DNA from: Ricordea florida
Taxonomy: Eukaryota; Cnidaria; Anthozoa; Corallimorpharia; Ricordeidae
Length of the DNA: 64,000 bases
Direction: 5' to 3'
Assembly: GCA_949710005.1 (NCBI GenBank)
Contig: OX453283.1
Span: 26,771,349 to 26,835,348, forward strand
In this document: positions 6,601 to 60,879 of the stretch, one piece after another
Position numbering within the stretch: position 1 is the stretch's first letter
Layout of the letters: every line of letters starts with the position of its first letter
Notes under the pieces: generated by a model
Told to the model about the DNA's origin: nothing
Seen by the model: the letters and a program-made list of their open reading frames with translations, nothing else
Database searches by the model: none
Position numbers and translations under genes: made by a program

Positions 6601-8612
6601 TGCCTTTCCCAACACAGGTCTGCTTTATCCAGTATATAATAGATATGTATAGGTATTTTCTTATCAGCCTATACAAGCCGTGATCTCAGTTATTTTAACA
6701 TACAAACATGCTGTACAGTGTTATACTGTTCTAGTACTCTTAGTCTGTCATTTCTCCTGCCTCACTCTGCCCTTGTTTCAATAAAGCTGGACTACTGGTA
6801 TGGGTGCACAGCTGCAACTTTGCATTGCATGTAGCAGGCTGGGTGTATCATCCCAAGGGTGGGTTGCGTCACAGTTGCAGGCTCATCCATGTTGCTAGGT
6901 GCATTGCTACCACCCTTATTCCAATGCGCAATATTGTTTAGGGTGTGTTGCTGCCACCCTTACATCATTGTCATTATTGCTCAGAGTGTGTTGCTGCCAC
7001 CCTTACATCATTGTCGTTATTGCTCAGGGTGTGTTGCTGCCACTTATGTCATTGTCATTATTGCTCAGGGTGTGTTGCTGCCACTTATGTCATTGTCATT
7101 ATTGCTCAAGGGTGTGCTGCTACCACTTACGTCATTGTCATTATTGCTCAAGGGTGTGTTGCTGCCACCCTTATATCATTGTCATTATTGCTCAAGGGTG
7201 TGTTGCTGCCACCCTTACATCATTGTCATTATTGCTCAGGGTGTGTTGCTGCCACTTACATCATTGTCATTATTGCTCAAGGGTGTGTTGCTGCCACCCT
7301 TATACCATTGTCATTATTGCTCAAGGGTGTGTTGCTGCCACCCTTATAACATTGTCATTATTGCTCAAGGGTGTGTTGCTGCCACTTACGTCATTGTCAC
7401 TATTGTTCAAGAGTGTGTTGCTGCCACCCTTATACCATTGTCATTATTGCTCAAGGGTGTGTTGCTGCCACTTACGTCATTGTCATTATTGCTCAAGGGA
7501 GTGTCGCTGCCACCCTTTTTGCTACTGGTTGGTGTGTTGCTGCCACCCCACCCCCCCCCCCATCCCCTTACACATTCACTCACAGGGTGTGTTGCTGTCA
7601 CCCTTCATGCTAGGGAGTACCCAACAACTGTAGTCCCATTTACTGCCAAAGTTTTGTGTAATGTTGTTGTTTTGTATTTACGTATATTTAGCAACAAAGC
7701 TGTTAATGAAATAAATTGACTGATAACAGTACTTCTAGTATACTATACCTTCAAAACCTCGCCAACTAGCTCACCACCATGTCTGTTAGAGTGTTCATCA
7801 ACCTAGGAAGGAGTAACAAAAAAACAAAACAGTAGGATTTGGAAATTAGTTTATCATCATTACTACTTTTCCTGAATGCAGCTTGAAACTGTGGATTAAA
7901 TTTCCTTTTCAAAGGGTAGCTGAGCTAAGCCAACACTTTGCATCTACAATAGCATCTCTAAGGGTTGGAGATGGGTAGGGTAGGGGGAGGGAGATGGGTA
8001 GGGTAGGGGGAGGGAGGTGGGTAGGGCAAGTTTTTCATTATTCCACCCTAAATCTCTCCACCATTTTCAATAAGCACAAGCCTTTAATTCAAAACAAAAG
8101 GGTTTGGAATATATTCTACTATTTTTTAAATTACTTTCTCCAATGTTTCAATGGCATTTTCAACTGCTAGGAAAAGAATCACCAAAATACCAATTAAAAT
8201 AAATCACTGAGCGTTTACCACATGACAGAATAACAACAGCACGTTTACAAAACCGTTGGTATAACATTTAGCTTTTTCTGCACGTCGGAAAAAAAACTAC
8301 ACTGACCAAAATATGCGTGACCTGGTCTCGCTATAATCATGTGATCAACAGCTGCTGAAATCATGGAAAAACAAGAGTTTTTTTACAGAATGCTCTATGA
8401 AAACTGTATGAATTGCTAACCTTGTAGATGTATTTATGAAGGATTCTTAATCTGTAAACAAAATACGCCAAAAGGGTGAGAATTCCGAGAAATAAGCACG
8501 CTGCAATTTCAACCAGAACTGCTAGAACCGCCATTACTATAGACGAGAGCAGCGACTGGAACGAATAATACTGGTTTAGGTTCCAGGTTACATTGCGGTA
8601 AACGGTCAACAT
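3648..8612 (-). CDS. ILVBL: ILVBL/HACL2-like ThDP-dependent 2-hydroxyacyl-CoA lyase, N-terminal 245 residues (partial)
   Basis: Eight minus-strand coding exons join in phase: 8421-8612, 7749-7802, 6230-6334, 5721-5799, 5034-5125, 4737-4813, 3820-3881 and 3648-3721, all with GT-AG borders. The product starts [10 protein letters not shown], has a membrane segment at about residues 24-52 ([20 protein letters not shown]), then the ThDP-binding N-terminal domain: [19 protein letters not shown], the RHE glutamate at residue 117 (the cofactor-activating Glu of this family), [20 protein letters not shown], and [16 protein letters not shown]. This follows human ILVBL closely. In mammals the protein is an ER-membrane enzyme that cleaves 2-hydroxyacyl-CoA. 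Human ILVBL has about 632 residues, so roughly 60% is missing. The remaining exons should lie to the left, beyond or in place of the BEL/Pao element. It shares a short upstream region with TRMT12. Confidence 0.88.
6940..7540 (+). repeat. 43-bp minisatellite in ILVBL intron 2, about 15 copies
   Basis: A unit of about 43 bp containing 'gtgtgttgctgccaccctta' and 'tcattgtcattattgctcaa' repeats about 15 times with small length changes (the 'cacccttacatc' and 'cacttacgtc' forms alternate). It produces long Cys/Leu/His-rich ORFs in all plus frames; these are repeat artefacts, not proteins. It lies inside the intron between ILVBL exons 2 and 3. A C-rich tract follows at 7545-7560. Confidence 0.9.
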
Positions 8613-24851: not shown

Positions 24852-27800
24852 TGTAACATCAGTGCAAATTAGACATCAAAATTCTGGATTATGACTGGCT
24901 GAAAGACAATAGTAAATTTTCTAAGGCAACATGATATCACGTAAAATGATGATGAAAATGTTCTGCGGAAACTTTGCGCTATGTAAGTTTTAATCATCAT
25001 GATGTTATTATTGATTTCTTGTATCAACCTAATACAAAATACAATACAGTTCTTTTCAGAACAAGCAATTTTAAGTGGACAACAATCCCTATATTATTTT
25101 TAGATCCAGCTTTCTATGGCCAGGAAAGTCAAGAAGGTAGCAGAGATTTATCAATTTCTTCACTGAGAAGAAAGCTTTTTGCACAAGAAGAAAAAAGAAT
25201 GAAAGCAGAGAAAGATGTTCTTGAACCACCAAGTAACATCAAGTGAGCTTTGTAAAGATGTTGAAATACTTAAAACAGAACTAACTCATTGACTGATTGT
25301 TCAGGTGATCTTGCAATCTATTTGGGTCTCTAAGGGGAACTTATCAATCAATGGATACATATAGCTCTGATGTCACACCAAAATTTATTTATTACAACTT
25401 GCATAAAATGGTAAAATCAATGTTAGCTTTTTCTTGGATAGATCAGTTAGTGGGTCATGCTAAAATCCATTCATCAATCATGGCCTGTTCGTGGTTTCTA
25501 GGGACAATTTAATCTCATTTTTTTAATTTACTTTTTGCCCTTTTTATTTTTTACAGATCCATCCTTAAGAGTCCCAAGAGCCCAATTTTGGTGAGTAAAC
25601 TACTGTGCATGTATGAAAAAATGAGAAGAATGAGTTATATCTGGTTGTCAAGATAAGAGATCCATTCCTATTATCATGTTGATAAGCTAATTGTAATTCT
25701 AGATGATTATTGCAGTCACAAAATGTAGTGAACAAAGTGACTTAATTGAAATGTAATGATGCAATGCATTAGTTAGCATGAATAAAGGCGTGAACGAACA
25801 TCCATGACTTTGGTTACTGACCCATCCTCAGACACTATACCAACATTACCAAATGCTGTATAATTTGTCAATTGCTGTTTTTCCCATTATTTTTGCCTCA
25901 AGTGTCTTCTGATAAACTGTTAGTTTCTCCTTTAAGTTACCTTGTATTCACTATTAAAATGAAAGGAGAATACAGTGTTACATCTCAAGTCACTTTAGAC
26001 CTTCTTCCAAGCACCTCTTTGTGTGACTTGGTTAAAGTCGCACAAACAAACAAAGGAAACTAAAATTCAAACCGAGGATAAAAATGAACCACAACATATG
26101 TGTTACTATTGTTAGGCGAAGTGGTGTATCAAGCATGTCCAGAGTGAATGCTTTTAACGAAAAATTTACTAATTCCAGGTGACTTCAAGTCCTGTGTCTG
26201 TCAAAGTAACACCAGGACAGAATGCAAGACGGTATTCAAGTGGCAGCACCGTGTCAAGCCCGAACATCTCTCCCATTAAACCATTGACTGTCCCAGAGAC
26301 ACCCACAGGAACTGGACGATCACAGTTTGCCAAGCTGTCAATGAGTCCAATGCACTTTTCTGCACATGTACTAGAATCTTCTGGAATCGAAGCCAGAGAT
26401 GTCATGTTCCCAGATATTTCTCCGATTAAAGAAAATGATAGTAGTGGAAGCGTTGACATCAGTGGTCATGTTCAAGAGATGGACATTGATAATGGTAGGT
26501 TGTATGTAATTTGCATGAAGTGTCTTTGTTCATTTGGCCGATAAAACCTGGTAATCACAACAACAAATAACGCGTCCTTTTTGCTCTAGAATTTTCCGCA
26601 ATTTCAGTCTTGATAAAAATTCTTGAATATTCTCAGATCGGTGCCATCTTCTTAACTTCAAGTCCGATTCAATTTCTAGAAGCCTCTTTTACTTTCTGAA
26701 ACCTGTAATCAAAGCAATTCGCCTTGTAAAAGATGGAAATCGAAGCGGAAGTCGTCTCACCAGGTGACCAAAGCTTTACACAGTAATTACAGCTAATTTG
26801 TTGTTAAGTTTACAAAGCTCTTTGTATAGAGTAGCTGCAGAATAAGATAATATTCTACCATGATTCTACTTATTGTTTCTGTTAATCTTGTTTCGTATCG
26901 AAGAGTTTTCAACTTCGAGTCGAATATTATAAACTTACAACCTCTTTTTAAGCATGGCATGGTCATTAAATATGTACACGTATTTAATAATTTATTAATG
27001 TCAGAGGAGATTGAAAAACTGCTGAACTACAATACCCCCGCGAAGTGGAATGTTTTCTATGTAGGTGCCTACAAAATACGAAAAAATCCGGAAGCCATCT
27101 TGTTATTTGAAGCGGTGACCAAACGTAGACACACTATACAATTACATGTATTATTGTTCATTCCTCGTTTCCAAAGCTTCGTCAGGCAAAATGTTAATGC
27201 ATAATATATTTACAAAGCTGCTAAGAATCTGGCAGTGCATTGTATCTGACTGCTATAAATGTCCTTTCTCTCACGAAAAGTAAGTGCACAGTTTAATGTA
27301 TCTTTATAGATAATAATGAATATGTTGCGGTTCAATTGTATCCATGTTTTAAATTTTATATTCTTTTGTTTCAAATCATTATCATATATTACCTGACCAA
27401 AAAACAAAGGAAAATGAAATTTAAACCAAGGGAGAAATTAAATTGCAACATATACAAAATAATAAGTAAGAGATTAACAATAATTACTATTATGCATCTG
27501 GATGAATTATGTCATAAAGTGGGTTTTAAAAGCACATAATGTTTAATTAGTTTTTCCTATGTAAGGACAACAAACAAATTTTTTTTTTTTAATTAATGGA
27601 TGTCCAAACATTATAGCTCATACTAAACATTCAGTTCCTCTGCATTGCAACAAATAGGTTGTTGGCTACAATGTTACATAAATAGTGCTTTTTTTATGAA
27701 AATAGCTATTGTTGCTGAATTTTGCTTTCAGGAGATTCTAAAGAGAATTCAAATGACTCCCTGGCAGATGGTGGCTCTCTGGAAGTTTCAGCATTGTCAG

Positions 27801-37233: not shown

Positions 37234-38694
37234 GTGATATTTAAGTCACTGGGAATTGGATTTTTTTTAATTTTGCCATTTGGAATGGGATTTGAGCACT
37301 GGGAAATTGGATTTCGAAAAAATAGGGCTGGGAAATGGGATTGGTCCCCCCTAGCAGGACCTTCGTTATTGTTTCGCTTTGAATTCCCCTAACGGTTTCG
37401 AAATAGATTGAACAAATATTTACAACCAAAAATGTGCTACTCCAGGTTTTGTTTTTACGTTATTTTTTTTTTCAATTGTTCGTAACCTGAACGAAAACGC
37501 AAGCAAGCTCCATGCCTGTTTTGATAACATTTTGAGAGATTTCCGTTCTGGGAGCTCATTGAAGAATTCAGGCTGAGTCAGGAATGGGCTCCTGGGCTGA
37601 GTCTGATAAACTGGATATTGAATATGGGTTTCTTGAACGAGTTGATGAATATAGGCTCTATCACGGTAACATAAGAGGAAAGCAGGTGTTTCAAGTGTTG
37701 ACTCTTCGTCAAAGCGTGTCAGTTGTAATTTTCCACCGATGCATCAAATATTTATGTAGAAAGTAACTCTTTTCTACATGTCTAGATACATACTGGTCTG
37801 GATATATTAGATCAGAGTCCCCCCCCCCCCCCCACCTAACCACACAATTTTTTTTCTTCTGTTAATATTCTATTGTCCAAACAAAGCGACTTATTCCCTT
37901 TGACCTCCGTATAATGTCCCTGCCGAACTGATTAACAGCCCCCTCACCGTTTGTCACCCCCCCCCCCCCCCAATCCTCCAACCCCTATCTCTTCTCTCTC
38001 TTTTCCTGGGCCTTCGGCCACACACTAATCGCTTCACTTCTCGGCATTTTGGTAAATGACCGAGGTTTTTCGGAACTCACAACCGAAAATGTTTGTTAAG
38101 AATGTGACAGCCTCAGGCAGCAGCCCATCCCTCCAATCATCATTACTCAGGTATTATACAAAATCGCGCGCTCTGATTGGTTCGCTATGTGGGATTATCA
38201 CCCGATAATCACCTCGACGAACAAAATGGCTGCCAGTCGCTGGCGCGTTTTTGATGAAATAAATTTTTTTCTTGTTGTACAATGCTTTTCTTTTCTTTTT
38301 TGAAATAGTCGCCTGTGTATTTATATTACAACAAATATTCGCCTCAGGCTCAGTGATTATCGGTAAATATTCACCGAGAATCACTTCGCCATAATTATTA
38401 ATATAAATATTTGGAGTCAGTGAAGTCTCGATTTTCTCGTTAGTTATCTTCCAACCATCTTGATATACGATGTAGGTTTTTCGGAAACACAACCGACAGC
38501 CCATGGAAATGTTCGGAAATACTACTCGTTGGTCGTGAACTGAAGAAAATGACGTTCATTACACGATCGCCATTTTTATCATCGACCGATGTTTTTCGGA
38601 AACACAACCAAAGGCGCCGGCAGAGATCTCATGTACACACCCACCGCGAGCGCCATTGTACGTAATTGTTCCCTTTATAGGCAGAGATATCATG
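37234..38694. other. Repeat-rich intergenic stretch, no gene
   Basis: It contains 'actgggaattggatt' repeats (37248-37345), two long C homopolymers (37818-37834 and 37958-37971), and a family of 'gatgtttttcggaaacacaa' segments repeated at about 38058, 38470 and 38588. 38154-38504 has an open minus frame (MGCRLCFRKTYIVYQDGWKI...) lying in this repeat. I recognise no domain and do not call it a gene. Confidence 0.5.
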
Positions 38695-38842
38695 TATATG
38701 TTGTGGTTCAATTTTATCCTTGGTTTAATTATTTTTCTCCCTTTGTTTTTGGCTATGGTAATGTATGATAATGTATGATAATTAGTTTAAAACAAAGGGA
38801 GAAAAATATTTAAACCAAGGAAACATTGAACCACAACATATA
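38695..38842. mobile_element. Palindromic MITE, complete copy
   Basis: The left arm 'tatatgttgtggttcaattt' / 'tatccttggtttaattattt' mirrors the right arm 'aaatatttaaaccaaggaaa' / 'aaccacaacatata'. The same family occurs at 27321-27452, 44477-44826 and as a half copy at 26051. Confidence 0.8.
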
Positions 38843-40238: not shown

Positions 40239-43200
40239 ATGCCACCGTATTCTGGTGACGAAGGCAAAGAGGGAAAAGACGAAGGGAAGGATGGACATTT
40301 CACGTAAGGAGCTCCCTTTGAAATCTCGTTAATGCAATGTTTATGTATGCGAAGGAGACAAAGCTAAACAGATCTCTCCGCCCGGGTTCAGAGTACATAT
40401 GTACGCCTCTTTAGTAGTAACAGTTTGGCCCGGCGATTTCATCACGGTCGTGCCAATTCACTTTGGCGGTTTGAAGCATTTAATGTCTCTTCAAGTGAAT
40501 TCATCTCTGGTCAACAGAGGGAAATCATTAGTTGGACTGCGCCGTGGTTTGCGGTCGTAAAATTGGAATTCTCCGGTTGTAAATCAAATCTCGAACGAGG
40601 GAAATTAGGATTCAATTTCGCTCATCATCCCACTACTCATAAAACAAACTTGTAGTGATTTTCCTGCCGTGATTTCCCTGTTGTGTTAGTATTTTAGTGG
40701 AACAAAACTGCATTATCAAAGCAAGCATGTGTTTATCAGCACCGACAACTGCCGATGCGGTTTCGTTGTTCACGAGGCGTGACTTATGAGTACACTCGAT
40801 TTTATGCTGTCGAATGTGAAATGTTCCCGTGTCTTTCTAGTACAGTACGCTTATGGAAATATATTTCAGAATCGTATCACGTTAAATTGCATTCTGCGTC
40901 GCTTATGAATTCCCTGCGTTTGAGCGTTTTAACGAAAAAAACGTGGGAAAGTAGACTCAAGAGGATCTGGATGTGAACGGTTACAAAGAAAGCGAACAAA
41001 CACGTATAGTATGTTTGTATGGTGTCGCGATGAAGTTATTATTGCAACTTCGTCATTTTCTTGGCAACAACAAGCTGGAATCTTGCCAGCTGTTTTAATT
41101 CGCCCCTAAACGTTAGTTGAAACCAGCTTTCACTATTTTCCAAAAATAGACATGCCTTAAGAGTCGTTCAAGCGTTTTGAAAATTCGATTTCAGAGCATG
41201 AACTGACTCGTGTACTGCAGAAATTTACACTGTAATGTGTTTTACACACGAACGTTTTCCGCTCACGTTATTTATTTATTTCTCTTGCCCCTTGATGATT
41301 GCATTAAATCTCGGTGATTTAATTCTATAGTTCTGTTTCAAGGCCATAAAAGATTCCGGCCTTGAGTCTGATTAGCATCTATAGATTCCTTTTGAAGATA
41401 GATTAGAGAAACAAAACTAGAACAAAACATCTGACACATTTGTTCTTTTGTTTAAAGTATTGTTTTACTGTTTACAGTCACCAGAGAGAGTTCTTATTTC
41501 TCCACCAGACTGACTTTTTTATAGCTTTGTCCATATTGAACTAATTCTTTTCTTTTTATTTCCTTATACCACATTACATATTGTTTTCCGGGTATTAATC
41601 ATGACCAAAGGCCTTTAAAACATGATTGGCCATTTCATGCAAAATAAATCCTCAAGTTGAACCTTAGTGTACTGTGGTACTGTTTGTTTTTAATACTATA
41701 CAGTGTGGTTCTAACCTTTTCATCTGTGGTTCAATTAAACCATGCAATGTGACCATTATTTGGAAAGCTACTGAACAGTAATGTACTGTGGTACTGTTTG
41801 GTTTATCATACAATGTGGCCCTAACTTTTTCTCCTGTATATTGTACACATATAATTTGACCAGTCCTGTTTTTTCTTTTTTTTTCTTTTTTTTTTCTTTT
41901 ATTATTACAAGACAAACTGAATTTAGTTTTTTCTTCTTTCAATTTGTTTCCTCTTGCTGACAATATGTTTTTTACAATAACTGAGCGAATTCTCGCGCGC
42001 TGATTGTCACAATATTGTCTTACAAGTTCTTTATTTAATAATTACGCAACAGATGAAAACATAACACGAGCGAACAAATATGGCGGATAGCTACAGTACC
42101 GCCTTAAGCTCCCGAGGCCTGATGGGAGCACATGGCATGACGTAATTTGACACTGATTGGCTAATTTTTATCATCAATAAGAGTACAGACACATAAAATT
42201 TTAATTTAAGTCTTCATTTGACCTTTTTCGCGTTTTGTTATTGTAAAAAACAAATTGATGTCAGTTTTTTATGCGTCTGTCCGCTTATTGATGATGAATT
42301 GCATCATAACATTGTCAAAGTTTGTTGTAGATCCACTCACCTATCGGATCGTGGATCTACAACACTTTGACAATGTTATGACGCAATTTATCATCAATAA
42401 GAGGACAGACGCATAAAAAACTGAAATCAATTTGTTAAATGTACTGTAATTGTAATTGTGTGATGTGCAGTCACAAATAATGGCCTCAACAGAGTCATGA
42501 AAAGTTAATTCATTTCAATTATTAAATTTATCACAATTCAGAGTCCTTTTTCTGTGTCCTTTTATTGATAATTAGCATTTCAAAAACATCTTTCATTTTT
42601 GCAGTGTTTAGTATATTATAATTTTCTAATTTTACTATGCTAATACTCAAACCAAGGCCATCCAAATCAATTTTCGTACAAATATTAAATGTCTGTTTTT
42701 GATACTGAACAACAGATTTGTGGCGAGTTTCTACCGACTAAGATGATTCTTTTTCAATCTTGATATGTTTTGTACAGTTATGGAGCAAATTAGTTGCATT
42801 TTAAGCGAAATGTAAAGCATTTGTAGAGATTCTATTGTTTAGATAATTGATCGTGATTGGATAATTTGTATGAAAATTTGTGTGGGTGGCCTGGGTTCAA
42901 ATCATGGCACTGTAATGATCAATAAGAGAACAGTGTAATTACAAAATGGATTTGATCTTATTTTTGTAACTGTTGTTTTCTTGGAAGATATATTTCTATC
43001 TTTTTAATATTAATAAAATGAATATATGTCCCAATGTGTAATAACTTAGAACATGTATGTATTGATCATGCTATCTATATTTATAGAACATGCGAAAATT
43101 AAGATAAATATTAGAAACTGTATAAAACAGAATTTAACAAATGAATGACTGTAGCAAGTGAAAAAACTCAAAAATGACCAGCTCCCAGTTGGTTTGATAG

Positions 43201-46200
43201 CTCAGTTGGCTTGATAGCTCAGTTGGTTTGATAGCTCAGTTGGTTTGATAGCTCAGTTGGCTTGATAGCTCAGTTGGCTTGATAGCTCAGTTGGCTTGAT
43301 AGCTCAGTTGGCATGATAGCTCAGTTGGCGTGATAGCTCAGTTGGTTTGATAGCTCAGTTGGTTTGATAGCTCAGTTGGCTTGATAGCTCAGTTGGTGTG
43401 ATAGCTCAGTTGGCTTGATAGCTCAGTTGGCTTGACAGCTCAGTTGGCTTGACAGCTCAGTTGGCTTGGTAGCTCAGTTGGCTTGGTAGCTCAGTTGGCT
43501 TGATAGCTCAGTTGGCTTGATAGCTCAGTTGGCTTGATAGCTCAGTTGGCTTGATAGCTCAGTTGGCATGATAGCTCAGTTGGCGTGATAGCTCAGTTGG
43601 TTTGATAGCTCAGTTGGTTTGATAGCTCAGTTGGCTTGATAGCTCAGTTGGTGTGATAGCTCAGTTGGCTTGATAGCTCAGTTGGCTTGATAGCTCAGTT
43701 GGCTTGATAGCTCAGTTGGCTTGATAGCTCAGTTGGCTTGATAGCTCAGTTGGCTTGATAGCTCAGTTGGTTTGATAGCTCAGTTGGTTTGATAGCTCAG
43801 TTGGCTTGATAGCTCAGTTGGCTTGATAGCTCAGTTGGCTTGATAGCTCAGTTGGCTTGATAGCTCAGTTGGCTTGATAGCTCAGTTGGCTTGATAGCTC
43901 AGTTGGCTTGATAGCTCAGTTGGCTTGATAGCTCAGTTGGCTTGACAGCTCAGTTGGCTTGGTAGCTCAGTTGGCTTGGTAGCTCAGTTGGCTTGGTAGC
44001 TCAGTTGGCTTGATAGCTCAGTTGGCTTGATAGCTCAGTTGGCTTGATAGCTCAGTTGGCTTGATAGCTCAGTTGGCTTGATAGCTCAGTTGGCTTGATA
44101 GCTCAGTTGGCTTGATAGCTCAGTTGGCTTGACAGCTCAGTTGGCTTGACAGCTCAGTTGGCTTGACAGCTCAGTTGGCTTGACAGCTCAGTTGGCTTGA
44201 CAGCTCAGTTGGCTTGACAGCTCAGTTGGCTTGATAGCTCAGTTGGCGTGATAGCTCAGTTGGCTTGATAGCTCAGTTGGCTTGATAGCTCAGTTGGCTT
44301 GATAGCTCAGTTGGCTTGATAGCTCAGTTGGCTTGATAGCTCAGTTGGCTTGATAGCTCAGTTGGCTTGACAGCTCAGTTGGTTAGAACGTGGCAGTGGT
44401 GTCACATGGTCATGGGTTTGAAACGCATTTAAGCCTGAACTTTTTCAAGTCTTATCTTCACAACTGCTCAAGTTGTATATGTTGTGGTTCAATTTTATCC
44501 TTGGTTTGAATTTTATTTTCCTTTGTTGAGGGGGGTAAAGGGGGGGGGGTCCCAAGTACGATTCACAGACATTAAAATGTAGAAATAACGCATCACGTTT
44601 AATCGGAAAAACGATTTTTAAGGTTCACGTATCACGACAGGTAAAACATTCACAGTTCACAGATTTTAATTTCACGTTTTCACTGGTCACGACAATTAAA
44701 ATCACGTATCACGCAATAATCCCTTTACCCCCCTCTTTGTTGCAAACTTGTTATTATACATTACCATACCAAAAATAAAGGAAAATAAAATTTAAACCAA
44801 GAAAAAAATTGAACTACAATATATACATAACTGCAATAGTCTTTTACTTGTTGGGTTTTGCGTATTAGAACTACATTATGAAGCAGCGAGGAATACATTG
44901 GTATTCAAATGAAGCGATTATTTTATCATTAATTTTTTTATCAAAGCTTAGTAAGTTTCACTTAGTATGTTTTTTGTGTTTGACTGCTGGAACATATTGT
45001 TTTGTTTTTTTTTTTTCAACTTTTCAGACACCAAGGGGCATCATTATATGATGTCCTGGGAGTGGACAAAGATGCCACACCAGAGGAGATCAAGAAGGCA
45101 TATAGAAAGGTGAAACCTCTATTAACCCTGCCTGGCTCATTTTTCAGAAGCAAATTCTCCTTAGAGGCCCCCATATATCCTATACAGTCCTAGCGTGGAG
45201 AATGTGTAGCACAGTCGACTCTGTTCATGATTGATTATCATTCCTTTATATTGTCATTATTGGTATTCAATCAATATGACAAGGAAAAAGTAGTATTGAT
45301 CACTGTTTTTTAAACTTTGACTTAATACAACATTGAACCCTTAACTCCCACAGTCAAACCTTGAGTCATACAATATGGTTCTACCTTTTAACCCTTTCAC
45401 TTCCACAGTCAAACCTTGAGTCATACAATGTGGTTCTACCTTTTAACCCTTTCACTCTGAGTCAAACCTGAGTCATACAATGTGGCTCTACCTTTTAACC
45501 TTTTCACTGCCACAGTCAAACCTTGAGTCATACAATGTGGGTCTACCTTTTAAACCTTTCACTCCCACAGTCAAACCTTGAGTCATGCAATGTGGTTCTA
45601 CCTTTTAACCCTTTCACTCCCACAGTCAAACCTTGAGTCATACAATGTGGTTCTATCTTTTAACCCTTTCACTCTCACAGTCATACCTTGAGTCATACAA
45701 TGTGGTTCTATCTTTTAACCCTTTCACTCCCACAGTCAAACCTTGAGTCATACAATGTGGTTCTATCTTTTAACCCTTTCACTCTCACAGTCAAAGCTTG
45801 AGTCATACAATGTGGGTCTACCTTTTAACCCTTTCACTCTCACAGTCAAACCTTGAGTCATACAATGTGGGTCTACCTTTTAACCCTTTCACTCACACAG
45901 TCAAACCTTGACTCATACAATGTGGTTCTATCTTTTAACCCTTTCACTCCCACAGTCAAACCTTGACTCATACAATGTGGTTCTATCTTTTAACCCTTTC
46001 ACTCCAACAGTCAAACCTTGAGTCATACAATGTGGTTCTATCTTTTAACCCTTTCACTCCCACAGTCAAACCTTGAGTCATACAATGTGGTTCTATCTTT
46101 TAACCCTTTCACTTTCACAGTCAAACCTTGAGTCGTACAATGTGGTTCTATCTTTTAACCCTTTCACTGCCACAGTCAAACCTTGAGTCATACAATGTGG

Positions 46201-49200
46201 TTCTACCTTTTAACCTTTTCACTGCCACAGTCAAACCGTGAGTCATACAATGTGGTTCTATTATTTAACCCTTTCACTGCCACAGTCAAACCTTGAGTCA
46301 TACAATGTGGTTCTACCTTTTAAACTGTTCACTCCCACAGTCAAACCTTGAGTCATACAATGTGGTTCTACCTTTTAACCTTTTCACTGCCACAGTCAAA
46401 CCTTGAGTCATACAATGTGGTTCTACCTTTTAACCCTTTCACTGCCACAGTCAAACCTTGAGTCATACAATGTGGTTCTACCTTTTAAACCGTTCACTCC
46501 CACAGTCAAACCTTGAGTCATACAATGTGGTTCTACCTTTTAACCTTTTCACTGCCACAGTCAAACCTTGAGTCATACAATGTGGTTCTACCTTTTAACC
46601 CTTTCACTGCCACAGTCAAACCTTGAGTCATACAATGTGGTTCTACCTTTTAAACCGTTCACTCCCACAGTCAAACCTTGAGTCATACAATGTGGTTCTA
46701 CCTTTTAACCTTTTCACTGCCACAGTCAAACCGTGAGTCATACAATGTGGGTCTACCTTTTAAACCGTTCACTCCCACAGTCAAACTTTGAGTCATACAA
46801 TGTGGTTCTATCTTTTAACCCTTTCACTCCCACAGTCAAACCTTGAGTCATACAATGTGGTTCTGCCTTTTAACCCTTAACTCCCACAGTCAAACCTTGA
46901 GTCAAACAATGTGGCTCAATTTTTTTACCCTTTCACTCTCAGGGTCAAAGCTTTACCCTTTGTAAGACAATTTTATTAGTGACACAGACTATATGTCCCC
47001 TTTCTCCTTTCTCTTTTTCTTATTTCTCCTTGAAGGAACTTTATAAATTGTTGTAAATTTTAAATCAGTAAGTAAATGTGAATTGTAACACATGTAGCTT
47101 TTTCCTTCCTTGGTAAATTGTTATCTGTGTTTTTTGAATTGAAAGAAAGCAATGGGAAAATAAAAGATAAATGTTGCCTGTGTTGTAACTAGAACTATGT
47201 TTGTTCGCAGATGGCATTAAAGCACCATCCAGACAAAAACCCCAATAATCCTGAAGCTACAGAGAAAGTAAGTATAGTGTAACCATGGAAAAGCAGCTGC
47301 AGTCAGGTGATAAAAGCTAATTTATTTAAGCAATAAACAAAAGTTTCTAAGGGATTACCTGCGTAATAAATCACACAGAATGCTGGGAAAACATGAGAGG
47401 GACCTAACGACATGAGAGCCATGGGTAAGTGATTTTCAAGCCCTTCGCGTGTTCTACCAACATACCAAGTGGTTTATTATGCTGATAAATCCGTAGAAAC
47501 TGCAGTTTATTGCTTTTATAAACTAACTTCAAATAAAAACATAAATGGTGTCTCTTTTCTATGGGTTTGCCAGCACAATAACCCATGGATTTGTGACCAA
47601 TCAGTGCATGCACAGTGCATGCACAGTATCTGAGTTTTTTTATAAAAAGGTGTACCATATTTTCTCTCCCTCAACAGGTGTAAAGATGTGTTTCTAGTGA
47701 TTTGGCAGGGGTGGGGGTTAGGGGGAGTGGCAGGTGACAAAATTCAGTTAGGGGTAAATTTACGCTTCATAACCAGGACCACCAAGCATGAATGTGTGCC
47801 TCAAGTTTCATATGAAATCTTTTCATGCCATTTATTGCAGCTAACCGTTTTTCATTGAATTGGGGGGGGGGGTGTTGGGTGCAGGGGTAGACTTTATCCT
47901 TTAGGCACAGAGGAATTGTAAATGTATTAGTTCACAAGGCTTAAGTTTGCAAATGAAATACATGTTAATGATGCTGCCAAAATTAATGTTGCCAAAGAAC
48001 AGATAATGTCGTTAGCTGTGAAGGATTTAAATTCCACGTGAAAAGGGAGTGATAATGTATTTTATTTGGGATATAAGGTATTCAAGATTTTTAAGATATT
48101 ATATTTGGGATTTAAGGAACATGTATTTTATATAGGATTGGTAAAAGTATTTTTATTAATGAAATTCAAGGAGTTTGAGGTTTTTAGGGTATTTTGTATG
48201 AGATTTAAGGTACTGGTATTTAAAGTTACTTGAGACATTTTCGATGGGATTGGTAAGGCATTATATATGGAATTTAATGTATTTAAGATTTTTAAGATTT
48301 TTAAGATTTTTAAGATTTGAGGTAATTTATATGGGATTGGCATGTTGGAATTTACAATATATATTCAAATGCGCAATAACACAACCACCACGGAAGACAC
48401 ACGAGATTACGGATGTCGGTCGTTTCGCCTACAGGATGATTCGCCTACAGGATGATTCGCCTACATACAAGTCGATTCGCCTACACGTTCTGAGACGTTT
48501 CGCCTACACGTTCTGAGACGTTTCGCCTACACTGAAGTCGATTCGCCTACAATCCAATACCCTAGAAAAGTAAATTAGTATAGGACAATTATCACTTTTA
48601 GCGACTACAGTTTTACTCGCGATACACAGATGTGACATTTTCCTTTTTATGAAATAATTTCTGATAACGTTTGTTGGAGGTTTTTTGGGGGGAGGGGGCT
48701 TTTTATAGGTGTACCCCTACTCGAGAATCGAATTCCAGGTCTTCTAATTGGTTAATGTTAATGTTGTTTACGTCTTTTGTTAAAATAAACTGATTTATTC
48801 TGTTAAAAAAAAAAACAAAGAGAAAAAATCACACCTACCTTGCGCGGGGCACTAATTAGCTCTTATTGTCAAGATAGTCACAAGTATAAATAGAAGGCTA
48901 ATAACAATACGGAAAAAAAGTCACACTTTAATACCTTACCTGAGACACTAATAAATTATCTAAATTATAAACTGTCTTTTACAATTTGTAGATTGGCTCT
49001 TATTGTCAAGATCGTCACAAGTATAAGCAGTAGAAGACTAATAACAATACGGAAAAAAAGTCACTTTATACCTTACCCGAGCCATAGTCTGCGCGCTGTT
49101 TTCTTGTCCACTTCGGAGAAAATTAATCCGATAACACACATATACCATTGAGTTAAAGTAAACTTTATTCTTCTGTTCTATTTTAAAAAAGTAAGCTTCG

Positions 49201-52500: not shown

Positions 52501-55358
52501 CTTTGAAATTCTTTTTACTTGTTGGCGTTTATTTATCATGGAGTATTAGACCATAATTTTATATCTAAGCGAAATGACACTAAACAATTTTTACTTCTTT
52601 TGAAAATCAGTTTTTAGCCTCTTAGGCCCATTCCTCTAGGTATGACCTCTACTTGTACAGAGTGTAACAATTTTTTTTAATTGAAATTGCTCTTCCGTAA
52701 GTTTTTATCTTCATTGTTGCTTATCTTGTATTTTAAAGGGTATTCTGGGCAAAGTGCCATTAAATTTAGCCTTGAAGGTATCCTTTTGGGTTGCACAATA
52801 TTACAAATACACATTTGATATGTATATTTCAAATATATGAATCGAGTAAATTAAACGAATTACTCGATTCATATAATCAAAGTTTTCTATAACATCAATA
52901 CCTAAAGAAAACTTTAACGTGGTCTCTTAGGAGTCAAAAAAAGCTGGACCACGCCCATATCGGTCTCCTTTAGGGGTTTAATTCAAAATTTCCGACGAGC
53001 ATCCCCGTCCCTTTCATATGCGATTCCCCCCCCCCCCCGCTCCACCTTTGTGCTGATATGTTAAGGAGAAGGTAGGCGTAGATCGCGCTTGGAGCTGAAA
53101 AGGGCAAGGGGTGGGACGTTAGGGACGGACCATTAGAAAAGTGATGGGGGGGGGGGGGAATTTTCAGCTTGCACGAATTTTTTTTCTCGCTCACTGCTTG
53201 TGCAGGAATTTTTTTTCAGGTGAACCCCTCTGCACGAATTAATTTTACTACGTGTGAAAAAGTCACAATTGGACCGTCCTTCTGCATGATTTTTTTTTTA
53301 CCTTCTTTGCATGAATTTTTTTTCTTGGCATTTTCCCTTGCATTAATTTTTTGTTTTTTTTTTTCCCACCCCCACCCCCCCCCCCATCACTTTTCTAATG
53401 GTCCGTCCCTTAATACATTGAATCCTGAGTAACATTTTTTTTTTCCGTTCAATTTTTGCAGAATGTGAAACTATACTTTAGGCTTAACAGTGGCTGGTGT
53501 AAGGTAAGATTTCTTATTCAAACTGCAGGGCTGCAAATAACAATCGGTCAGCGGTCATTGTCAGACCAAAATTAGCTCATGTCCGACGAAATCCCAACTG
53601 TGGTAGGCCATGATGTCCGGGCAATTTTTTATCATGTATTGTTTGATAGTAAAGATGAATAAAATTCAACCGTCTTCGCTTTTTGTTGTGATGTCCGACT
53701 ACATTTTTGTTTTGTCCGACCAAAATGGTCACTTATTCGGACATATGTCCTTTCAAGGGAAAAAAAATTATTTGCAACTCTGAACTGTAAAATGTTATAA
53801 TTGGCTGCTTTCCCTTGATACTTTCCTTTTGAAGCAAGTACTGGCAAGTTCACTGCGTAAAGGTATCGACTTAAACCCACAAAAATCGCTGTGATATACG
53901 TCTCACTTTGCCTCTCTAAACCAAGTTCCAGTTCCCAGCGTGCATGGCGGGCAGCTCAGTTGGTAGAGCATCGCACCGGTGTTCTCGAGTTCGCAAGTTC
54001 GAATTCCGTTCCAGTCTATTCTTTTCCCGGTTTTATTCAATAGACGTGAGTGTTTAACTGAGAATTGCACCACTCGTAAAATTCATACGAAACTACATCT
54101 GGGACCATAGTGGGGTCTTTTCTGTGGCGTATTTTCCTCGCCAGTGAGGATATGGATGACGTCATTTCTCGCCTGGCACGATTCAGTTTGTGTACGAAAC
54201 TGGCAAACGCATGTCTTTTTTTGTTTAAGTCTATATAATAAAAAGAAAATTACACGTTAGCTCGAAGATATTAATTTTATGTTCTTGCCACTAAAATTCA
54301 TATCTTCTCGCCACCTCTATATACAAACCTCGGTTATGTTACAGTTGCTAAAATTTGTGTTGATTCTACTAGGGTAAAATTTTTTATTTCTTTTTTAACC
54401 GCGATCCAGATATGTGATATATTTCCGATATACTAGAGTCATTGCTCCCGTTTCTTTTTGTATGAGCTTACTTTTCACCAATTTTTCAAGCTCAAAATTC
54501 ACCATCTTCACTATTTATCATCCCTTTCAGCTCTTTGACATTCAATCCTTGCAGTGTAGTTTAATGACCTTGCTCCCACGATTCTCCTATAACACAGTCG
54601 TAGAGCGTCCGAACTAGTAATCGGAAGGTCGTGAGTTCGACTCCTATCGGGAGAACTTGAATTTTCTTTTTAGTAATCGGAAGGTCGTAGGTTAGACTCC
54701 TATCTGGAGAACTCGGATTTGCTTTTTCGTAATCGGTAGGTCGTAGGTTAGACTCCTATCTGGAGAACTCGGATTTGCTTTTTCGCAATCGGTAGGTCGT
54801 AGGTTCGACTCTTATCGGGAGAACTCGGATTTGCGTTTTAGTAATCAGAAGGTCGTAGGTTGGACTCCTATTGGGAGAACTCGGATTTGCTTTTTAGTAA
54901 TCGGTAGGTCGTAGGTTAGACTCCTGTCGGGAGAATTCGGATATGCTTTTTAGTAATCGGAAGGTCGTGAGTTCGGCTCCTATCGGGAGAACTCGGATTT
55001 GCTTTTCCGAGTTTGCCTGTCACTGTGCCGAAAAAGACATCATTCAGCTTACTGTGTGTTTTGTTTTGTTCGTCAGGCTTTGTTTATGTTCTGTGGCGTC
55101 ATCACCTGTTGCTACTTCTGCTGCTGCTGTTTTTTCTGTTGTAATTTCTGCTGTGGAAAATGTAAACCTGTTCCCGACGAACAGTGGGAAGACTTCGCTT
55201 ACGAAGATATCAAAGACGACGACGAGCCGGTCACGACTCAGCCCGGAAGCGTCGGTAACAATACGAGCAGCCACGACCCGGCGCCGAAGTCTCCAGGTGT
55301 AGATAGCGCGACAAGCAACAGCACAACAACTTCCGCTATCCCCATGTCCTCGTCGTGA
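40239..55358 (+). CDS. DNAJC5: DnaJ homolog subfamily C member 5 (cysteine-string protein), complete
   Basis: Six exons join in phase: 40239-40303, 45028-45109, 47211-47267, 49689-49799, 53462-53503 and 55077-55358, giving 212 residues (human 198). The J domain starts at [20 protein letters not shown]; the HPD motif is in [18 protein letters not shown]; then [20 protein letters not shown] and [20 protein letters not shown]. The palmitoylated cysteine string follows, [19 protein letters not shown], then an acidic and Ser/Thr-rich tail. It is a co-chaperone for Hsc70 on secretory vesicles. The first exon ([20 protein letters not shown]) is inferred from the in-frame join, the GTAAGG donor and the upstream CRE; it could be a different exon. 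Introns 1-5 hold tandem arrays, MITEs and a nested LRR gene. Confidence 0.93.
42249..42436. mobile_element. Near-perfect 188-bp hairpin, MITE-like, DNAJC5 intron 1
   Basis: Two arms of about 87 bp are almost exact reverse complements, from 'aacaaattgatgtcag' to 'ctgaaatcaatttgtt', including 'tttttatgcgtctgtccgct' and 'gttgtagatccac', around a loop 'tcacctatcggatc'. A related arm fragment, 'catcaataagagtacagaca', lies at 42171-42192. Confidence 0.85.
43184..44385 (+). repeat. 17-bp tandem array, about 70 copies of an RNA polymerase III A-box unit
   Basis: The unit is TTGATAGCTCAGTTGGC. The 12-base core TAGCTCAGTTGG fits the tRNA A-box consensus TRGCNNAGYNGG. Variants change only the spacer (cttgat, catgat, gcgtgat, ggtttgat, cttgac, cttggt). 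A block of variants starting 'gcatgatagc' at 43311 recurs at 43566, exactly 15 units (255 bp) away, so longer blocks were also duplicated. The right end flows directly into an intact SINE body, showing where the unit came from. It lies in DNAJC5 intron 1, sense orientation. Confidence 0.95.
44378..44480 (+). repeat. tRNA-derived SINE body at the end of the A-box array
   Basis: 'agctcagttggttagaacgt' (A box) is followed by 'ggtcatgggtttgaaacgca' (degenerate B box) and the tail 'caagtcttatcttcacaact'. The tail is shared with 3411-3545 and 60618-60740. Confidence 0.75.
44477..44826. mobile_element. 'tatgttgtggttcaatttta' MITE split by a second MITE
   Basis: The left arm is 44477-44528 and the right arm 44743-44826 ('aaaataaaggaaaataaaat' ... 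'ttgaactacaatatata'). The insertion is the 206-bp element 44529-44734 plus one copy of its target duplication. Confidence 0.8.
44529..44734. mobile_element. Nested 206-bp element with 8-bp target duplication
   Basis: The ends AGGGGGGTAAAGGG and CCCTTTACCCCCCT are perfect inverted repeats of 14 bp. CTTTGTTG occurs on both sides (44521-44528 and 44735-44742). The interior is rich in 'tcacg' words ('gttcacgtatcacgaca'). The 8-bp duplication suits a hAT-type mobiliser. Confidence 0.85.
45345..46940 (+). repeat. 55-bp tandem array, about 29 copies, DNAJC5 intron 2
   Basis: The unit reads 'ccttttaaccctttcactcc' + 'cacagtcaaaccttgagtca' + 'tacaatgtggttcta'. In the right part (46320-46780) three unit types (taaaccgttcactccc, taaccttttcactgcc, taaccctttcactgcc) cycle, giving a 165-bp higher-order repeat. 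Partial relatives ('tcatacaatgtggccctaac') sit at 41690-41835 in intron 1, perhaps an ancestral form. Confidence 0.95.
48412..49338. mobile_element. Foldback-type element with tandem TTCGCCTACA arms, about 0.93 kb
   Basis: The left arm (48412-48552) and right arm (49200-49338) are inverted and each is built from repeated 'gtcgattcgcctaca', 'gacgtttcgcctaca' and 'gatgattcgcctaca' units of about 15-20 bp. Outer tips are 'gtcggtcgtttcgcctacag' and mirror 'ctgtaggcgaaacgaccggc'. The interior has a direct duplication of about 85 bp ('ctcttattgtcaagat' at 48862 and 48992; 'aacaatacggaaaaaaagtc' twice). It has no coding capacity and lies in DNAJC5 intron 3. Confidence 0.8.
49345..49617 (-). repeat. 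tRNA-derived SINE, minus orientation, A-box region deleted
   Basis: It matches 58475-58770 over 'gtgtgtgggttctttaacgt', 'gaacaagggttgtga', 'gggacct' and 'gcagcactttctcctcagt'. The B-box part ('ggttggaacccacgacg') remains, but the A-box segment present in the other copy is missing. Confidence 0.7.
49836..50236. mobile_element. 401-bp inverted-repeat element (CAGGGGCACCCAACG ends), DNAJC5 intron 4
   Basis: The ends CAGGGGCACCCAACG and CGTTGGGTGCCCCTG are perfect 15-bp inverted repeats. TTTTAA flanks both sides. The interior repeats the word 'attttcgga/g' many times. It starts 36 bp after the donor of DNAJC5 exon 4. Confidence 0.75.
50525..50760. mobile_element. Foldback repeat, family with 58850-59065
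   Basis: 'accgtagggtaaaagaaggg' and 'ccctcttttaccttacagt' form outer arms; 'acgtttcgagcgttag' and 'taacgctcgaaacgt' form inner arms. A tail, 'ttactttatcaactggtttg', is shared with 58850-59065. Confidence 0.65.
51110..52396 (+). CDS. Intronless leucine-rich repeat protein (RNase-inhibitor type, LRRC74-like), nested in DNAJC5 intron 4
   Basis: A single 428-residue ORF starts at the ATG of [10 protein letters not shown] and ends at TAG. Residues 1-110 are polar and carry a charged helix ([18 protein letters not shown]). From about residue 148 to 390 there are 28-residue leucine-rich repeats: [82 protein letters not shown] and [19 protein letters not shown]. The 28-residue spacing is the ribonuclease-inhibitor class, as in LRRC74 proteins. 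The role is unknown; such repeats usually bind proteins. It lies on the same strand inside a DNAJC5 intron with no intron of its own, so it may have arisen by retroposition. Codons look intact throughout, suggesting selection. Confidence 0.85.
   Translation: MSSFEMKGTSSAAYDRSLAMRWNQVQRNTMVDERFVVKPSVADLPKVTSQSRLVVAARGKIRHEKEKLEAEKETLVNEQIPQCNSCEGDVVGEEIIIKSSALPAQSERTEVFEFFKSRRFDTEVNLNERNLGPVNASEISLELFPSMTVTRLHLANNLLRNEGGKAIAKALEDNFSVKELDLSGNFLGRSALSSVGEMLRKNGTLEKLNLSQNHLIDQDIEVLMETLREKTVVKELDLSHNILCDEFAKQMSLVLQSNTSLEKLNLSSNQIEASGLRAMQLGLQKTLTLRSFCVSWNYLYDIGAEVLGDIIAANRSLVEISACGNLFTAQAANFLAEAVVKNANLRVLRLGQNLIRNLGAYAFLNAFCESASEFALETLDINGTIVDKAFEEKVFTKLPEISRSLKITNFTVVEEVKIVLENRSIKSR
53122..53409. 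mobile_element. PIF/Harbinger-like MITE, 288 bp, TTA duplication
   Basis: The ends GGGACGGACCATTAGAAAAG and mirror CTTTTCTAATGGTCCGTCCC are perfect inverted repeats continuing into G- and C-runs. TTA is duplicated at 53119-53121 and 53410-53412, as expected for PIF/Harbinger. The interior is a series of 'cacgaattttttt'/'gcatgattttttt' words. It ends 52 bp before DNAJC5 exon 5. Confidence 0.85.
53945..54040 (+). repeat. tRNA-like SINE head
   Basis: 'gggcagctcagttggtagag' gives a D-arm with A box, and 'gcaagttcgaattccg' a B box. The T-stem does not pair well and the 3' part runs into unrelated AT-rich sequence, so this reads as a SINE rather than a functional tRNA gene. It lies in DNAJC5 intron 5. 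Confidence 0.55.
54587..55012 (+). repeat. 56-bp tandem array, 7 copies, each with a B-box-like motif
   Basis: Units start 'agtaatcggaaggtcgt' at 54615, 54672, 54728, 54784, 54840, 54896 and 54952. Each contains a version of GAGTTCGACTCC (pol III B box GGTTCGANTCC) followed by 'tatcgggagaactcggattt' and 'gctttt'. The first unit is preceded by 'cagtcgtagagcgtccgaac', the remnant of a tRNA-like A-box half. The array ends about 65 bp before the last DNAJC5 exon. Confidence 0.9.
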
Positions 55359-59579: not shown

Positions 59580-60879
59580 ATGGAGAACAGCGTAGAGACC
59601 ATTGGTGAGGAAACACTTGATGAACCTCCAAGATCACTGCATTCAAGATTAGGATCTCCAGTTCGTTTTGTCAATCATACTGGACGAAACGTCAAAATGA
59701 TTTGGTTAAACTACTCAGGGGAAGAAGTTTTCTACGCAAAACTTTCTGGATTTGGGACAAATTCCTTATCCAACGGACACTTTTTCGAGGCAAATACTTT
59801 TGTGACACATCCATGGATTGCTGTGGATGAAGACACAAACGAAAGAATGTTATTAAACTTTAAGAAAGTGTATTTTCCATCAGTGCCAAGAATTCGTCGT
59901 GTAGATTGCCAACGACGAAGAGCTTTGGTTGTTAGAACCGAAATTATCATCACAACTCCAGGTAAATATTTAGAAACAAATCTGTCAATAGTTTTTTGGC
60001 TTTTTCAGGACGAAGTGTAACAACATGTTGAAAGCCATTTTCTGAAATTACGAAGAAATCATGATATAAACAACAATTAAAAAAGAAACATTAAATACGT
60101 ATGGAGATAAACTTGAGCAACAGCTCAGTTTGTTTTAAGGTGGTTCACATATTACATTAGTTTACACCAACTCAGCAATGTTAGCATTTTGAGCAGTCTG
60201 ATTGGTTCACAATCTTGGGATATTCATTACTTTTTACCTCTTGAAAAGTGAATACTGCTGGGGATTTTGTGAAATCATTGTGCTATAGCTAGTGAATGTT
60301 TTTTTGAAAAACAAAGGGAGCAACTACAGAATACAGGGCCACCTTGGTCCACCTCGTTTACAGGTGTCGGAGGCTTTTGTAGAACGAAGCAGATAACAAT
60401 GGACACTGTTGTTATTCAGTGGTATGTAAATAAGTGGCACTGTATTCTGTAGTTTAGCCAAACAAAAACGTTTGTGTTTGAATGTATTTGTGTGAAAATT
60501 TCATATATGTGCACTGTGGTAGAAAGATACTTTATAAATGAAAGATCCTCACAGTTACCAGTATGTAAGCAGCATAGTCAGTTGCCGAGACAAGACCTCA
60601 AAAAATGCAGACTTGAATGGGCATTGCAAGGTCATAGGTTCGAATCCCATTCAAGCCTGAATTTTTTTCAAGTCTTACATGTATCTTTGCAACTGATTAT
60701 GTTGCTTACATATCTGATAGGATTTTTCATTTGTTAAATATTTGTGTTTCTTATCTTTTGTAGTTCACACTCTAGAGGAGTACTGCAAAAAAACATTGAG
60801 AAAATTTGTCGTGGCAGAAGACTTCCACAAACTTCCTCTTCCACCGAGAATCATAGAAGAACTGTCCCAAACTCTTTGA
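59580..60879 (+). CDS. VHL: von Hippel-Lindau protein, complete
   Basis: Exons 59580-59961 and 60764-60879 join in phase into 165 residues. The beta domain (about 24-126) reads SPVRFVNHTGRNVKMIWLNY, GEEVFYAKLSGFGTNSL, THPWIAVDEDTNERMLLNFK and VYFPSVPRI. The alpha domain (128-165) is VHTLEEYCKKTLRKFVVAED..., matching human [20 protein letters not shown]-like helix H1. Leu131 and Cys135 correspond to human Leu158 and Cys162, which contact elongin C. Tyr in VFYAKL, and His/Trp of HPW, correspond to Tyr98, His115 and Trp117 of the hydroxyproline pocket. VHL is the substrate receptor of the CUL2 ubiquitin ligase that removes hydroxylated HIF-alpha. The chosen ATG gives a product like the short human isoform (160 residues). 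An upstream non-coding exon may join at the acceptor near 59525. AATAAA at 61466. Confidence 0.93.
60328..60458. mobile_element. Palindromic MITE in the VHL intron
   Basis: The ends 'aactacagaatacagggcca' and 'tggcactgtattctgtagtt' are inverted repeats. The interior has no coding sequence. Confidence 0.65.
60618..60740 (+). repeat. tRNA-derived SINE, B-box and tail, VHL intron
   Basis: 'ggtcataggttcgaatccca' is a perfect B box, followed by 'ttcaagcctgaatttttttc' and 'aagtcttacatgtatctttg'. It is the same family as 3411 and 44378. Confidence 0.7.

What the first reader, a model, noticed from the sequence alone, without database searches (positions are those of the whole stretch)
43184..44385. 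About 70 tandem RNA polymerase III A boxes inside a protein-coding intron
The 17-bp unit TTGATAGCTCAGTTGGC contains a full A-box match and the array ends in a SINE body with a degenerate B box. So one internal promoter element of a SINE has been amplified into a 1.2-kb satellite, with 255-bp higher-order duplication. Such an array could bind TFIIIC or tRNA-modifying machinery as a decoy, nucleate antisense or sense pol III transcripts, or be a neutral slippage product. I know of no common description of an A-box-only satellite.
Basis: partly seen in the sequence, partly recalled or inferred. Interest (0 to 1): 0.75.

Follow-up and report, generated by a model that had tools for sequence, protein, structure and literature searches.

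The report
SINE promoter fragment grown into minisatellite
A 17-base piece of a tRNA-like mobile element has been copied head to tail 70 times in an apparent intron of a chaperone gene; other copies of the element show the same expansion at other lengths, so it looks like a built-in weak spot of the element rather than a working device.

Summary
In detail: 43193-44382 holds 70 head-to-tail 17-bp units, all spacings 17; 60 of 70 fit the A-box consensus. The array sits inside one copy of a dispersed SINE-like element with a tRNA-like head (mostly called tRNA-Thr). The window's 537.8-Mb genome has 1,499 matches to that head. Of 961 exact heads, 812 are preceded by CAGTTGG, the heptamer that also ends the unit, so 24 bp of the 17-bp period is already in the parent. 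Twelve loci read form a ladder from 2 to about 80 units, in two subfamilies, with different variants. The window's SINE body is 79% like its relatives, its units 97%: the array is younger than the insertion or homogenised since. Nothing supports a decoy or promoter role: the window's B box has two mismatches, the C10 array has mutated cores, folds are weaker than shuffles. Closest known kind: SINE-derived satellites of reptiles. New: the short, A-box-only unit and the built-in seed. Interest is modest.

The parts
43164..43192 (+). 5' part of the host SINE, ending in the heptamer CAGTTGG (43186-43192) that seeds the 17-bp period; left edge judged by eye
   Evidence: Closely similar sequence precedes the head in most ordinary copies read
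43193..44382 (+). Array of 70 units of 17 bp; each unit equals nucleotides 3-19 of the tRNA-like head (rest of the 5' acceptor strand, positions 8-9 and the A-box/D-arm)
   Evidence: tRNA register from ARAGORN starts in ordinary copies
43261..43430 (+). 10-unit block, first copy of the single internal duplication (lag 255 bp)
43516..43685 (+). 10-unit block, second copy
44383..44479 (+). Rest of the host SINE: 3' part of the tRNA-like head and body; 66 of 84 columns agree with nine relatives
44415..44425 (+). Degenerate B box, two mismatches to GGTTCRANNCC
45028..45109 (+). J-domain exon of a DNAJC5 (cysteine string protein) homologue; the array ends 645 bp upstream, same strand
   Evidence: Splice signals; a J-domain peptide joined from three exons hits Pfam DnaJ 2e-30 and PDB chain 2n04_A, named DNAJC5, 9.5e-39

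Best explanation
A SINE-like element with a tRNA-Thr-like head inserted in sense orientation in an apparent intron of a DNAJC5 homologue. Most copies of the parent element already contain CAGTTGG twice, 17 bp apart (just before the tRNA-like head, and at its D-loop), i.e. 1.4 copies of a 17-bp period. After insertion this built-in repeat let replication slippage or unequal exchange add units; length then grew and units were homogenised, including one 255-bp-offset block duplication. The result is a neutral, length-unstable minisatellite. Shown: the array, its SINE junctions, the seed in ordinary copies, the ladder of unit numbers, and the contrast between a decayed SINE body and uniform units. 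Inferred: that growth followed insertion, the DNA-level mechanism, length instability and neutrality.
For: Seed: 812 of 961 exact heads carry CAGTTGG upstream (the 961 include a few multi-unit copies). Ladder in the same genome, 12 loci read: 81, 70, 13, 7, 4, 4, 3 and five with 2 units at the cut-off; at the stricter one L042 has 80, L047 3 and L045 2. Three more were seen only as pattern matches. Two subfamilies, and different unit variants (window and C10 array have 7 and 13 unit types and share 2), point to separate events. Age: window units 97.2% to the unit and 0 of 770 core bases changed, SINE body 66 of 84; at the body's divergence about 165 core changes would be expected. At zero mismatches the TTAGAG subfamily has 3 multi-unit matches against 59 single copies, the TAGAGC subfamily 4 against 937 (Fisher P 0.007; the single and multi patterns are not identical, and the window array itself is not among the 3).
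Against: No population or long-read data on length variation, and no relatives of this genome are held, so growth after insertion is not seen directly. The ordinary-copy patterns are exact and miss decayed copies, which could inflate the subfamily contrast; the tool calls its counts lower bounds. 149 of 961 heads lack the exact heptamer, and 6 of 62 on part of C1 lack even AGTT. Slippage is not favoured by hairpins: single-strand folds are weaker than the shuffle mean. The four longest arrays lie nearer to contig ends than 34 single copies (P 0.004, n=4, post hoc), so chromosomal position may matter besides the seed.
Confidence: 0.85

Rival explanations
1. The array was amplified in a source element and spread by retrotransposition as an already multi-unit SINE.
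For: Two-unit copies exist in both subfamilies; a two-unit source could give several of them.
Against: Unit numbers differ at all four loci with 7 or more units, and the two largest share only 2 unit types. pol III starts near the A box next to the B box (established knowledge), so most of a long upstream array would not be in the RNA. About 1,370 of 1,499 head matches lie outside the multi-unit loci read.
Confidence: 0.08
2. The array is kept for function: many A boxes recruit TFIIIC/pol III, or the intronic RNA with about 70 tRNA 5'-end fragments binds tRNA enzymes.
For: 11-bp core unchanged in 70 of 70 window units; the array has no TTTT pol III stop; the C10 array has an exact B box next to about 80 units.
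Against: Core invariance has P 0.055 for five random substitutions; in the C10 array 16 of 81 units have a changed core; the window B box has two mismatches; no structure beyond shuffles.
Confidence: 0.05
3. Unrelated satellite with chance likeness to an A box.
For: The A-box consensus alone is weak: 48 matches outside the array in 62.8 kb, both strands.
Against: SINE-like sequence on both sides in register with ordinary copies, and units running into SINE sequence on the 3' side at the 11 other multi-unit loci read.
Confidence: 0.01

Closest known systems
SINE-derived satellites (sSat) of squamate reptiles, Vassetzky et al. 2023, PMC10702118 (abstract, Background, Results parts 1-2 of 3, Discussion read)
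   Same: Tandem units cut from part of a tRNA-related SINE, SINE sequence left at the array ends, longer loci more uniform, recurrent origin in several SINE families and taxa; long sSats prefer subtelomeric regions and the four longest arrays here lie nearer to contig ends.
   Different: sSat units are about 70-290 nt; the main snake unit includes the B box. Here the unit is 17 bp and covers only the A-box end. SINE sequence flanks both ends of the window array, which the paper calls a minor variant. Different animal group (my guess: anthozoan; no call names it).
tRNA-like tandem repeats of amphibians (newt PolIII/TAN, Xenopus OAX, Rana/polIII), as summarised in PMC10702118
   Same: Tandem repeats with tRNA-like sequence.
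   Different: Units of about 360 nt (newt) and 250 nt (Rana), OAX said to be long; the paper finds no confirmed parent SINE. Here the parent is identified.
Ordinary minisatellites seeded by short direct repeats (general knowledge, recalled)
   Same: Short unit, seed repeat, range of lengths, block duplication.
   Different: The seed is carried around the genome by a mobile element, so the same minisatellite can start at hundreds of places.

Membership tests
SINE-derived satellite (sSat) | Repeat unit is a portion of a SINE | tested here: met
   Unit equals tRNA-like nucleotides 3-19 of the ordinary element; that the element is a SINE is itself only partly shown, see below
SINE-derived satellite (sSat) | At least four tandem units with SINE sequence beyond the array end | tested here: met
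   70 units, SINE-like sequence on both sides
SINE-derived satellite (sSat) | Unit about 70-290 nt | tested here: not met
   17 bp; range from PMC10702118. So filed as a variant of this kind, not as a plain member
SINE-derived satellite (sSat) | Preference of long loci for subtelomeric regions | tested here: inconclusive
   Four longest arrays at 0.02-0.11 of contig length from an end; 34 single copies have median 0.20 with 6 of 34 at or under 0.113, and 2 of 10 shorter arrays are that near; P 0.004, n=4, post hoc; contig ends not shown to be telomeres
tRNA-derived SINE (the parent element) | tRNA-like head with A and B boxes | tested here: met
   ARAGORN calls a tRNA in 14 of 18 loci given, 13 Thr and 1 Ser; B box exact in 6 of 15 copies examined, 4 mismatches in the worst. 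The head does not stand at the very 5' end: about 60-75 bp upstream of it are also shared
tRNA-derived SINE (the parent element) | Target-site duplications | tested here: inconclusive
   28 copies: 13-bp repeats abut the element in L004 and L010; L117 has a 16-bp repeat further out; the rest have none, or shorter, distant or element-internal ones
tRNA-derived SINE (the parent element) | 3' end shared with a partner LINE | not tested
   No LINE library searched
tRNA-derived SINE (the parent element) | pol III transcription | not testable with these tools
   No expression data

The most novel reading that the evidence does not exclude
Stacked A boxes beside an intact B box, as in the roughly 80-unit array on contig C10, form a multi-A-box pol III/TFIIIC platform in which the start point can shift along the array, making a repeat-length-tunable promoter; the window copy is a relic whose B box has decayed.
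Probability: 0.05. Interest if true: 0.65.

Novelty: new variant of a known kind. Interest (0 to 1): 0.33.

Why it matters
It gives a clear worked case of how a mobile element can seed minisatellites: a heptamer repeat inside the element sets the period, and a ladder from one to about 80 units can be read in one genome. Such arrays are candidate length markers. If pol III used them, promoter strength by A-box number would become testable in nature.

Tried and rejected
Viral collection scan with the head pattern: 0 matches. Prokaryote contig scan: 3 matches, all at tRNA-Phe genes with a chance upstream AGTT. Rfam at gathering scores: 0 in the window. ARAGORN on the window: 0 tRNAs. Literal search of papers for the unit: 0. 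Literature: 9 searches of the 10 allowed; in the titles and abstract starts shown I saw no A-box-only satellite, but two listings were cut (20 of 58 papers, 10 of 226). Only PMC10702118 was opened; other papers were seen as listings. Selection on the core: not significant and not borne out by the C10 array. Hairpin-driven growth: folds weaker than the shuffle mean. Candidates L092, L093 and L094 were fetched as possible arrays and gave no run of two or more units. C6:11477318 and C5:10085756 are doubtful and not counted. That the genome is a stony coral or other anthozoan is my guess from recall; no call names it.

Full report
What is there. The window holds 70 units of 17 bp at 43193-44382, all 69 spacings exactly 17; Tandem Repeats Finder gives 43186-44382, 70.4 copies, 96% matches and 0 indels. 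The 11-mer AGCTCAGTTGG is unchanged in 70 of 70 units; variation is confined to four of the other six positions. 60 of 70 units fit the A-box consensus TRGYNNARNNG (recalled) and 10 have a C for its first T. The consensus itself is weak: 48 matches elsewhere in 62.8 kb, both strands. The 255-bp feature is one duplication of a 10-unit block, not a repeating higher-order unit.

Where it sits. The array ends 645 bp upstream of an exon at 45028-45109 with a splice acceptor and donor. Three exons joined by eye give an 83-residue peptide that matches Pfam DnaJ (2e-30) and, best in the PDB, chains named DnaJ homolog subfamily C member 5 (9.5e-39); a cysteine-string exon ends at 55358 (my reading). 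So the host gene looks like a cysteine string protein homologue and the array is in the sense direction. The upstream exon was not identified.

What it came from. The window is G000:C12:26771349-26835348 in a 537.8-Mb genome of 48 contigs. The pattern AGTTGGYTTGRTAGCTCAGTTGG occurs 830 + 669 times there, with 0 matches of the pattern read backwards; 130 of these fall in the multi-unit loci read (sum over). In most ordinary copies read, AGCTCCCAGTTGG or a near variant is followed by one unit, then TAGAG or TTAGAG, a B box and a body. ARAGORN calls a tRNA in 14 of 18 loci given, 13 as Thr and the C10 array locus as Ser; in ordinary copies the call starts at the GG before the unit. The unit is therefore tRNA-like nucleotides 3-19, and its length is the distance between G1G2 and the D-loop G18G19 (tRNA numbering recalled).

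Why 17 bp. The heptamer CAGTTGG stands just before the head and again at the D-loop, 17 bp apart. Of 961 exact heads searched without asking for it, 812 have the whole heptamer upstream. The parent element thus mostly carries 24 bp of the period before any expansion.

The ladder. Twelve loci read have two or more units: 81, 70, 13, 7, 4, 4, 3 and five with 2 at the cut-off; at the stricter cut-off three of them are one lower (L042 80, L047 3, L045 2). Three fetched candidates had none. Three further clear matches were seen only as patterns. Multi-unit copies occur in both subfamilies. The window and C10 arrays share only 2 unit types. The TTAGAG subfamily has relatively more multi-unit copies (3 against 59; 4 against 937 in the other; P 0.007), with the caveats that exact patterns miss decayed copies and that the single and multi patterns are not identical.

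Age and neutrality. The window's SINE body agrees with the majority of nine relatives in 66 of 84 columns, the lowest of the ten copies compared (others 0.80-0.92); its units are 97.2% to the unit. About 165 core changes would be expected in the array if it had aged like the body without homogenisation; there are none. In the C10 array 65 of 81 units have an intact core, so the core is not protected there. Five random substitutions leave an 11-bp invariant run in 5.5% of trials. The window B box has two mismatches while those of the C10 and C11 arrays are exact. DNA folds of both strands and an RNA fold of eight units are weaker than the shuffle mean.

Position. The four longest arrays lie at 0.02-0.11 of contig length from an end; 34 single TTAGAGC copies on contigs of known length have a median of 0.20, 6 of them as near as the arrays (P 0.004). 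The other 25 of 59 single copies, on contigs whose length I did not have, were left out. This is four loci and post hoc.

Comparison. SINE-derived satellites are described from squamates, with units of about 70-290 nt, leftover SINE ends and a subtelomeric preference (PMC10702118). The present case fits that kind except for its 17-bp, A-box-only unit and its ready-made seed. I saw no description of such an array in nine literature searches, of which I read listings only, apart from that paper.

Neighbours. The same gene region carries two further minisatellites: 55 bp x 29.5 (45336-46953) and 56 bp x 7 (54615-55006). By my reading the latter repeats the B-box half and tail of another tRNA-like SINE (six units have a B box with one mismatch); its junction pattern has 313 matches genome-wide, including a stretch of over 5 kb on C10 seen only as pattern matches. 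In this genome both ends of tRNA-like elements seem to have grown into tandem repeats.

Noticed in passing
window 54615-55006: Seven 56-bp units that I read as the B-box half and tail of another tRNA-like SINE, before the cysteine-string exon; the unit junction has 313 matches genome-wide (up to 3 mismatches), many at G000:C10:7273843-7279312, so it looks like a B-box SINE-derived satellite.
   Followed up: partly
window 45336-46953: 29.5 copies of a 55-bp unit in the next intron of the same gene; a 33-bp piece of the unit has 552 matches genome-wide (up to 2 mismatches), many of the listed ones at multiples of 55 bp.
   Followed up: partly
G000:C1:45886036-45898054 and pairs such as C1:19353685/19353939: The tRNA-Thr-like SINE also occurs in head-to-tail pairs 253-260 bp apart (some read, L050-L053) and in a 12-kb cluster seen only as pattern matches, perhaps a satellite of the whole element.
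   Followed up: partly
window 60527-60752: Two related SINE bodies in inverted orientation, forming a long imperfect palindrome.
   Followed up: no
window 44474-44527, 44774-44827, 26049-26099, 27317-27370, 27403-27457, 38693-38747, 38791-38842: A roughly 54-bp repeat in both orientations, next to the array's SINE body and elsewhere in the window.
   Followed up: no
window 6940-7517: 44-bp tandem repeat, 13.5 copies.
   Followed up: no
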